Source: Rudaea sp.
GTDB taxonomy: Bacteria > Pseudomonadota > Gammaproteobacteria > Xanthomonadales > Rhodanobacteraceae
Assembly: GCA_025934455.1 (NCBI GenBank)
Contig: JAICYA010000107.1
Coordinates: 1-6,801, forward strand
DNA: 6,801 nt
Reading direction: 5' to 3'
The notes below the pieces were generated by a model that was given only the letters and a program-made list of their open reading frames with translations, was not told the DNA's origin and made no database searches. Shown in pieces: positions 1,693-4,993 of this stretch; position 1 is the first letter of the stretch, and each line of letters starts with the position of its first letter. A program made the position numbers and the translations under genes.

Positions 1693-1721
1693 TTGACAGG
1701 CCTGGACATTTAATGTACTAT
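1693..1721 (+). promoter_or_regulatory. Distal sigma-70-like promoter of rpoH
   Basis: A perfect -35 TTGACA (1693-1698), a 17-base spacer and a -10 TACTAT (1716-1721, 4 of 6 with TATAAT). Transcription would start near 1728, giving a leader of about 95 bases that contains the hairpin at 1736-1751 and the CIRCE palindrome. It is the best housekeeping promoter match I see in the window. Confidence 0.55.
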
Positions 1722-1735
1722 TCGGTGTAGTAAAT

Positions 1736-1751
1736 CTGGCCGCGAGGCCAG
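1736..1751 (+). repeat. Perfect 6-bp inverted repeat with GCGA loop in the rpoH leader
   Basis: CTGGCC (1736-1741), GCGA (1742-1745), GGCCAG (1746-1751). In RNA it would form a GC-rich hairpin closed by a GNRA tetraloop, a few bases after the predicted distal start site, followed only by TTT. It could stabilise the 5' end, attenuate the distal transcript, or be a protein operator; nothing in the sequence decides between these. Confidence 0.4.
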
Positions 1752-1770
1752 TTTGAACTTCAGGGCTTGT

Positions 1771-1797
1771 TTAGCACTCCAACTTCACGAGTGCTAA
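1771..1797 (+). promoter_or_regulatory. CIRCE operator (HrcA site) upstream of rpoH
   Basis: TTAGCACTC (1771-1779), nine-base spacer (1780-1788), GAGTGCTAA (1789-1797): an exact match to the CIRCE consensus TTAGCACTC-N9-GAGTGCTAA. CIRCE is the operator of the heat-shock repressor HrcA, whose activity depends on the GroE chaperonin. It ends 25 bases before the rpoH ATG and overlaps the proximal promoter, so bound HrcA should block rpoH transcription. CIRCE sites normally precede groES-groEL or hrcA-grpE-dnaK; none of those genes is here, so the site must serve rpoH. Presence of hrcA elsewhere in the genome is assumed. Confidence 0.93.
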
Positions 1798-1800
1798 AAT
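1771..1800 (+). promoter_or_regulatory. Proximal rpoH promoter embedded in CIRCE
   Basis: The left CIRCE arm supplies a -35-like TTAGCA (1771-1776, 4 of 6), and the right arm runs into TAAAAT (1795-1800, 5 of 6) after 18 bases. Overlap of both promoter hexamers with the operator arms is the usual geometry at CIRCE-controlled genes. The start site would be near 1807, leaving a leader of only about 16 bases. Confidence 0.5.
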
Positions 1801-1811
1801 TGCGTTCATAC

Positions 1812-1817
1812 GGGAGG
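1812..1817 (+). promoter_or_regulatory. Ribosome binding site of rpoH
   Basis: GGGAGG lies 5 bases before the ATG at 1823. It is a strong Shine-Dalgarno match and fixes the rpoH start. Confidence 0.8.
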
Positions 1818-1822
1818 TTTCA

Positions 1823-2686
<864 letters not shown>

Positions 2687-2803: not shown

Positions 2804-4993
<2,190 letters not shown>

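What the first reader, a model, noticed from the sequence alone, without database searches (positions are those of the whole stretch)
1771..1797. Letter-perfect CIRCE operator directly controlling rpoH
The palindrome equals the CIRCE consensus at all 18 arm positions with a 9-base spacer, and overlaps the promoter 25 bases before rpoH. CIRCE usually guards groE or dnaK operons. Here the repressor of one heat-shock circuit (HrcA) would control the sigma factor of the other, giving a hierarchy in which GroE titration releases HrcA and then raises RpoH. I recall comparative work proposing HrcA/RpoH cross-links in some proteobacteria, but not whether this lineage was included.
Basis: partly seen in the sequence, partly recalled or inferred. 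Interest (0 to 1): 0.72.

Follow-up and report, generated by a model that had tools for sequence, protein, structure and literature searches.

The report
HrcA operator built into rpoH promoter
In this bacterium the DNA switch of one heat-shock system (HrcA) sits on the promoter of the master gene of the other (RpoH); the arrangement is widespread in relatives that own HrcA and looks fused with an envelope-stress promoter, so it is a real but partly known piece of wiring.

Summary
TTAGCACTC-N9-GAGTGCTAA lies at 1771-1797 with no mismatch (none expected), 25 bases before the rpoH ATG (1823). It is not a local oddity: 42 of 80 rpoH loci from public genomes carry it within 2 mismatches. Among 90 Xanthomonadales rpoH loci it is present in 48 of 50 genomes with HrcA and 0 of 40 without. 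HrcA-to-rpoH control is therefore the best reading; CIRCE before rpoH was already in print for Geobacter (PMC545781).

New here: the rpoH CIRCE is superimposed on a sigmaE-type promoter. GAAC[TC] ends 9-11 bases before the left arm in 41 of 48 distinct Xanthomonadales-set sites (shuffle mean 0.27; 0 of 46 groES sites), and left arm plus first spacer bases read as a sigmaE -10. Relatives without HrcA keep a sigmaE-like promoter in 24 of 40, without the palindrome. So HrcA probably gates an envelope-stress promoter of rpoH. In a subgroup both arms changed together (left CTC to GTC, right GAG to GAC). The window's own genome is not held, so its hrcA was not checked; no binding or expression test exists, and one Xylella observation points the other way.

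The parts
1771..1797 (+). CIRCE operator TTAGCACTC-N9-GAGTGCTAA (arms 1771-1779 and 1789-1797, spacer 1780-1788)
   Evidence: conserved at rpoH
1823..2686 (+). rpoH, heat-shock sigma factor sigma32, 287 aa
   Evidence: TIGR02392; sigma70 regions 1.2, 2 and 4
1755..1760 (+). predicted sigmaE-type -35, GAACTT
   Evidence: same element at about the same distance in relatives
1778..1782 (+). predicted sigmaE-type -10, TCCAA, made of the end of the left CIRCE arm and the start of the spacer
   Evidence: spacer position 3 is A in 39 of 48 distinct rpoH sites, 2 of 46 groES sites
1771..1800 (+). predicted sigma70-type promoter TTAGCA-18-TAAAAT with extended -10; the -10 (1795-1800) overlaps the right CIRCE arm
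   Evidence: third base after the right arm is T in 45 of 48 rpoH sites, 13 of 46 groES sites
1693..1721 (+). second, upstream sigma70-like promoter TTGACA-17-TACTAT
   Evidence: only; conservation not tested
1812..1817 (+). likely ribosome-binding site GGGAGG
   Evidence: read

Best explanation
The palindrome is an HrcA operator that represses rpoH directly. HrcA bound at 1771-1797 would cover the -10 regions of two overlapping promoters, a sigmaE-type one (-35 GAACTT at 1755, -10 in left arm plus spacer) and a sigma70-type one (-10 in the right arm plus AAT). When GroE is busy with unfolded protein, HrcA loses DNA binding (described for B. subtilis HrcA, PMC6032397, passages), groESL and rpoH are released together, and RpoH then raises the other heat-shock genes, perhaps including hrcA itself, whose upstream region has no CIRCE; that would close a negative loop. 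Shown here: the operator, its conservation, its tie to the presence of hrcA, and its fixed register with a sigmaE-like promoter. Inferred: binding, repression, use by sigmaE, the order of events, RpoH control of hrcA (only weak promoter matches, 2-4 mismatches of 12), and that this genome has hrcA and rpoE.
For: Exact CIRCE. Within 2 mismatches before rpoH in 42 of 80 loci, exact in 25. Present in 48 of 50 HrcA+ and 0 of 40 HrcA- Xanthomonadales. Over 147 loci with both facts known, 77 have both, 59 neither, 8 HrcA only, 3 site only; one genome is in twice, as L003 and L122. The upstream neighbour of rpoH differs between loci (acetyltransferase here; uracil-DNA glycosylase, FtsX and FtsY look-alikes elsewhere, judged by eye), the site stays with rpoH. 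Whole-genome scan of 10 genomes within 2 mismatches: 11 places in 7 genomes, 5 at rpoH, 4 at groES, 1 doubtful, 1 at a contig end. GAAC[TC] ends 9-11 bases before the left arm in 41 of 48 distinct sites of the Xanthomonadales set (0.27 by shuffle) and in 20 of 39 other sites (0.22), but in 0 of 46 at groES. RpoE (TIGR02939) in 149 of 151 genomes. Best CIRCE match upstream of hrcA has 6-10 mismatches in 19 of 19 loci. The three nearest genomes (RpoH 84, 81, 79%) all have HrcA and an exact site.
Against: The window's genome is not held. No binding or expression data. In Xylella fastidiosa under nitrogen starvation hrcA rose four-fold and the groE genes fell while rpoH rose two-fold (PMC3224663, passages), opposite to simple HrcA repression of rpoH there. 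Eight HrcA+ loci lack a site within the threshold and three HrcA- genomes (all MAGs) have one. The co-occurrence rests on few independent events: a sign test on independent pairs gives median p 0.125. The 10-genome scan also found its backward control pattern in 2 of 10 genomes, so lone 2-mismatch hits mean little. The window's -35 is TTGAACTT, not GGAACTT.
Confidence: 0.8

Rival explanations
1. The palindrome is conserved at rpoH because it encodes promoter elements, and HrcA binding is secondary or absent.
For: Both arms overlap promoter-like hexamers, and relatives without HrcA keep a sigmaE-like promoter in 24 of 40.
Against: Those HrcA- relatives have no palindrome within the threshold, 0 of 40. 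Arm symmetry is kept even where the base changed: left C with right G 24, left G with right C 14, against 10 mixed, of 48 (kinship ignored). Promoter function does not need symmetry.
Confidence: 0.1
2. CIRCE controls rpoH but the sigmaE-like element is not used; only sigma70 reads this promoter.
For: The window's -35 is TTGAACTT rather than GGAACTT and its -10 has C, not G, before TC; no start site is known. 19 of 39 sites outside the Xanthomonadales set lack GAAC[TC] at this distance.
Against: Fixed spacing in 41 of 48 distinct sites, absence at 46 groES sites, rpoE in 149 of 151 genomes.
Confidence: 0.2
3. CIRCE acts on the divergent acetyltransferase gene (start near 1601, or 1709 if the longer ORF is used) rather than on rpoH.
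For: Divergent arrangement in the window.
Against: The site is 25 bases from rpoH and about 170 (or about 60) from that start; in relatives the upstream gene differs while the site stays before rpoH.
Confidence: 0.03

Closest known systems
CIRCE upstream of rpoH in Geobacter sulfurreducens (PMC545781, heat-shock section and Table 8, passages read)
   Same: Exact TTAGCACTC-N9-GAGTGCTAA before rpoH, hrcA in the genome, groESL also under CIRCE
   Different: A deltaproteobacterium; site listed at -51; there hrcA-grpE-dnaK-dnaJ also has CIRCE, while hrcA of the 19 relatives looked at here has none; no overlap with a sigmaE promoter in the passages read
[quoted passage not shown] paper not held)
   Same: Title covers the groups looked at here; it may already list rpoH
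   Different: Content not seen; any claim of priority for beta/gamma rpoH must be checked against it
E. coli rpoH P3, the RpoE promoter of rpoH (PMC8103513, passages read)
   Same: RpoE transcribes rpoH; the review gives GGAACTT as an E. coli RpoE -35 target
   Different: E. coli does not ring in the HrcA search (controls); the enterobacterial loci here have no CIRCE at rpoH
CIRCE at groESL
   Same: Same operator, same repressor
   Different: In 46 groES sites left arm position 3 is G in 40 (A in 45 of 48 at rpoH), no GAAC[TC] at that distance, A at spacer 3 in 2, T three bases after the right arm in 13

Membership tests
CIRCE / HrcA operator | TTAGCACTC-N9-GAGTGCTAA inverted repeat | tested here: met
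   0 mismatches; consensus as printed in PMC545781
CIRCE / HrcA operator | hrcA in the same genome | not testable with these tools
   no genome held; met in the three nearest relatives
CIRCE / HrcA operator | placed at the promoter or leader of a heat-shock gene | tested here: met
   25 bases before rpoH, overlapping promoter-like hexamers; the promoter is predicted, not mapped
CIRCE / HrcA operator | presence follows hrcA among relatives | tested here: met
   48 of 50 with, 0 of 40 without; but few independent events, median p 0.125
CIRCE / HrcA operator | HrcA binding and repression | not testable with these tools
   no wet data
sigmaE (RpoE) promoter | GGAACTT -35 and a TCNNA-type -10 about 16-17 bases on (the -10 and spacing recalled, not from a call) | tested here: inconclusive
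   window has GAACTT-N17-TCCAA (counted there as 18 after GAACT); strong register in relatives; no start site mapped
RpoH (sigma32) | curated family score | tested here: met
   TIGR02392 416.2 bits, cut-off 323.1

The most novel reading that the evidence does not exclude
In HrcA-bearing beta- and gammaproteobacteria the rpoH promoter is a built-in conflict: one short sequence must be both a symmetric HrcA operator and a sigmaE promoter, so rpoH answers envelope stress fully only when GroE is also short. The CIRCE consensus forces CTC where HrcA-less relatives with the promoter have GTC (G in 21 of 24). A subgroup (named members: Lysobacteraceae bacterium NML93-0793, L005, and Luteimonas terricola, L002) escaped by the change TTAGCACTC to TTAGCAGTC, matched by GAG to GAC (CAC in L002) on the other arm, with a Met-to-Leu change next to ATIRN in HrcA (8 of 12 with a non-G right arm, 0 of 13 with G): co-evolution of operator, promoter and repressor.
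Probability: 0.35. Interest if true: 0.65.

Novelty: new variant of a known kind. Interest (0 to 1): 0.45.

Why it matters
It would mean that in many bacteria the two textbook heat-shock circuits are not parallel but stacked: the repressor that senses GroE capacity holds down the sigma factor gene itself, on the very bases that the envelope-stress sigma factor must melt. The natural variants (canonical, mixed, switched, lost) make the trade-off between operator and promoter directly testable.

Tried and rejected
Searching the window's own genome for hrcA and other CIRCE sites: not held. Papers not held: Permina and Gelfand, a Geobacter RpoH paper by a recalled DOI, a sigmaE paper by a recalled DOI and a recalled PMC number. 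A Proteobacteria regulon paper (PMC5343134) holds neither HrcA nor rpoH in its main text. An RNA-hairpin reading of the palindrome was considered and not pursued: from either overlapping promoter only part of the palindrome would be transcribed (inference). A full switch of HrcA specificity as the reason for the GAC arms was rejected: the groES sites of most of those genomes keep GAGTGCTAA on the right, and 7 of 48 rpoH sites have C on both sides, that is, changed on the right arm only. A first HrcA extraction script found no usable motif and was replaced.

Selection to bear in mind. 90 of 144 Xanthomonadales RpoH loci were examined, the 30 best hits plus 60 that I picked down the ranking; 54 were not. 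Spacers of 8 or 10 were allowed with one penalty, and C or G at the seventh arm position was free. HrcA was checked in 49 of the 70 remaining first-scan genomes. L071 and L063 were dropped for missing upstream sequence. Four near-identical sites (L114, L122, L125, L127) were dropped. L122 and L003 are one genome, counted twice. In one search, 46 of 50 groES loci gave a distinct site within 4 mismatches. In one search, 25 of the 36 HrcA loci were used, those whose rpoH operator was known.

Full report
Observation. The 27-base palindrome at 1771-1797 matches CIRCE at all 18 arm positions with a 9-base spacer; it is the only match with up to 3 mismatches in the window, and 200 shuffles gave none. 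It ends 25 bases before the ATG of an ORF (1823-2686) that scores as RpoH. The window also holds the end of an acetate/propionate kinase, a CBS-BON protein, an acetyltransferase, priA, an ECF sigma factor and two proteins with DUF matches. The RpoH is nearest to three unnamed Xanthomonadales genomes at 84, 81 and 79% identity; on a quick tree it pairs with the first, L099 (98% SH-aLRT).

Conservation. One scan of public genomes with the RpoH protein kept the best 80 loci (more matched). CIRCE within 2 mismatches lies before rpoH in 42 of 80, exact in 25; two loci lack the upstream stretch. The 42 include Dyella, a Rhodanobacter MAG, Nitrosomonas, Pandoraea, Methylocaldum, Polynucleobacter and Pseudoalteromonas; the enterobacterial and Vibrio loci have none at rpoH.

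Tie to hrcA. In 151 Xanthomonadales genomes RpoH was found in 144 at the threshold used and HrcA in 71. For 90 rpoH loci (30 best hits and 60 picked down the ranking) the operator, with C or G allowed at the seventh arm position, is there in 48 of 50 HrcA+ and 0 of 40 HrcA- genomes (Fisher 1.4e-23, which ignores kinship). With the first-scan loci of known HrcA state added: 77 both, 59 neither, 8 HrcA only, 3 site only, of 147 rows, one genome entering twice. Of the eight, L107 and L144 have decayed sites, L001 and L006 decayed versions of the switched site, and L031, L033, L077 and L079 nothing within the threshold; the three site-only cases (L007, L043, L065) are MAGs, where hrcA may simply be missing. 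On the quick tree the fewest changes are 11 for HrcA and 13 for the site; in 7 independent pairs the site goes the same way in 4.1 and the other way in 0.2 on average, too few for significance. One HrcA- genome, G023 (L104), shows what loss may look like: the left arm is broken and the spacer has one extra base, while GAACTT and the sigmaE-like -10 remain.

Size of the regulon. In 10 genomes scanned whole within 2 mismatches, 7 had a match: 11 places, 5 at rpoH, 4 at groES, 1 doubtful in Dyella and 1 at a contig end; the backward control pattern matched in 2 of the 10. hrcA, with a grpE-like motif downstream in 12 of 19 loci within the stretch held, has no CIRCE upstream in 19 of 19 (best match 6-10 mismatches). 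In 38 paired genomes the rpoH operator is closer to consensus than the groES one in 24, equal in 8, farther in 6; exact in 15 against 3.

The promoter. Two sigma70-like promoters were found between 1600 and 1900, one over the palindrome. More telling is a pattern across loci: GAAC[TC] ends 9-11 bases before the left arm in 41 of 48 distinct sites of the Xanthomonadales set, window included (shuffle mean 0.27), and in 20 of 39 other sites (0.22). The left arm ends in TC and spacer position 3 is A in 39 of 48, giving TCNNA. The third base after the right arm is T in 45 of 48, as a -10 of the form TAANNT needs. At 46 groES sites the same numbers are 0, 2 and 13, so these are features of rpoH and not of CIRCE. 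GGAACTT is given as an RpoE -35 in E. coli, where RpoE drives rpoH P3 (PMC8103513, passages). RpoE is in 149 of 151 genomes. GAAC[TC]-N16-18-TCN[ACG]A occurs in 41 of 50 HrcA+ loci, 39 of them at the operator or its decayed form (L124 and L125 have theirs about 180 bases up), and in 24 of 40 HrcA- loci, against 0.64 expected for each. So the sigmaE-like promoter looks like the shared core and CIRCE an overlay found with HrcA; 16 of 40 HrcA- loci show no such promoter.

Variation of the operator. Among the 48 distinct sites the bases at the seventh left and third right arm positions are C/G in 24, G/C in 14, C/C in 7, G/G in 2, G/T in 1 (association p 3e-5, kinship ignored). The G/C form, typically TTAGCAGTC-N9-GACTGCTAA, turns the base before TC from C to G, as in 21 of 24 HrcA- sigmaE-like promoters. 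This fits an operator giving way to the promoter while staying symmetric; the seven C/C sites, changed only on the right, do not fit that story by themselves. In 25 HrcA sequences the second residue after ATIRN (ATVRN in one) is Leu in 8 of 12 with a non-G right arm and in 0 of 13 with G; one of the 12, L095, belongs to a badly decayed operator. Kinship alone may explain this.

Evidence the other way. In Xylella, hrcA up four-fold went with rpoH up two-fold under nitrogen starvation (PMC3224663, passages; also told in PMC11764788, passages). Xylella's own rpoH operator was not looked at here; Xanthomonas pisi (L001) and two unnamed relatives (L124, L125) have a weakened left arm.

What is known. 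CIRCE before rpoH is in print for G. sulfurreducens (PMC545781, passages). Ten searches of the open-licence library led me to no paper that, in the passages I opened, joins HrcA/CIRCE with a sigmaE promoter at rpoH. Most subscription papers and the Permina-Gelfand study are not in that library, and RegPrecise was not searched, so this is no claim that it is unpublished. The plain finding is a new member of a known kind; the composite with a sigmaE promoter is why I file it as a variant.

Noticed in passing
window 2804-4993 (-), TGA at 3596-3598: priA is interrupted by one in-frame TGA in its Cys-rich region; the frame is open on both sides. Sequencing error or real nonsense was not tested.
   Followed up: no
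L036 (Pseudoalteromonas luteoviolacea), rpoH upstream: Exact CIRCE at rpoH in a genome whose only HrcA match is weak (1.2e-11, 46.6 bits, where most others score about 200): a strongly diverged HrcA may still read the classic operator.
   Followed up: no
L104 (G023), 64 to 30 bases before rpoH: HrcA not found; palindrome decayed with an extra spacer base, GAACTT and AGTCCAA kept: looks like a relaxed operator after loss of the repressor.
   Followed up: partly
L151 (G044), rpoH upstream: Perfect CIRCE arms with an 8-base spacer in an HrcA+ genome.
   Followed up: no
HrcA of L094, L095, L096, L097, L189, L211, L214, L215: Leu instead of Met two residues after ATIRN goes with a non-G third base in the rpoH right arm.
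   Followed up: partly
window 1736-1751: Perfect hairpin CTGGCC-GCGA-GGCCAG just upstream of the GAACTT element; not in the upstream stretch of the nearest relative, L099, printed.
   Followed up: no
L017: A MAG named Verrucomicrobia carries an RpoH 61% like the window's and a 1-mismatch CIRCE before it; a misbinned or misnamed record seems likely.
   Followed up: no
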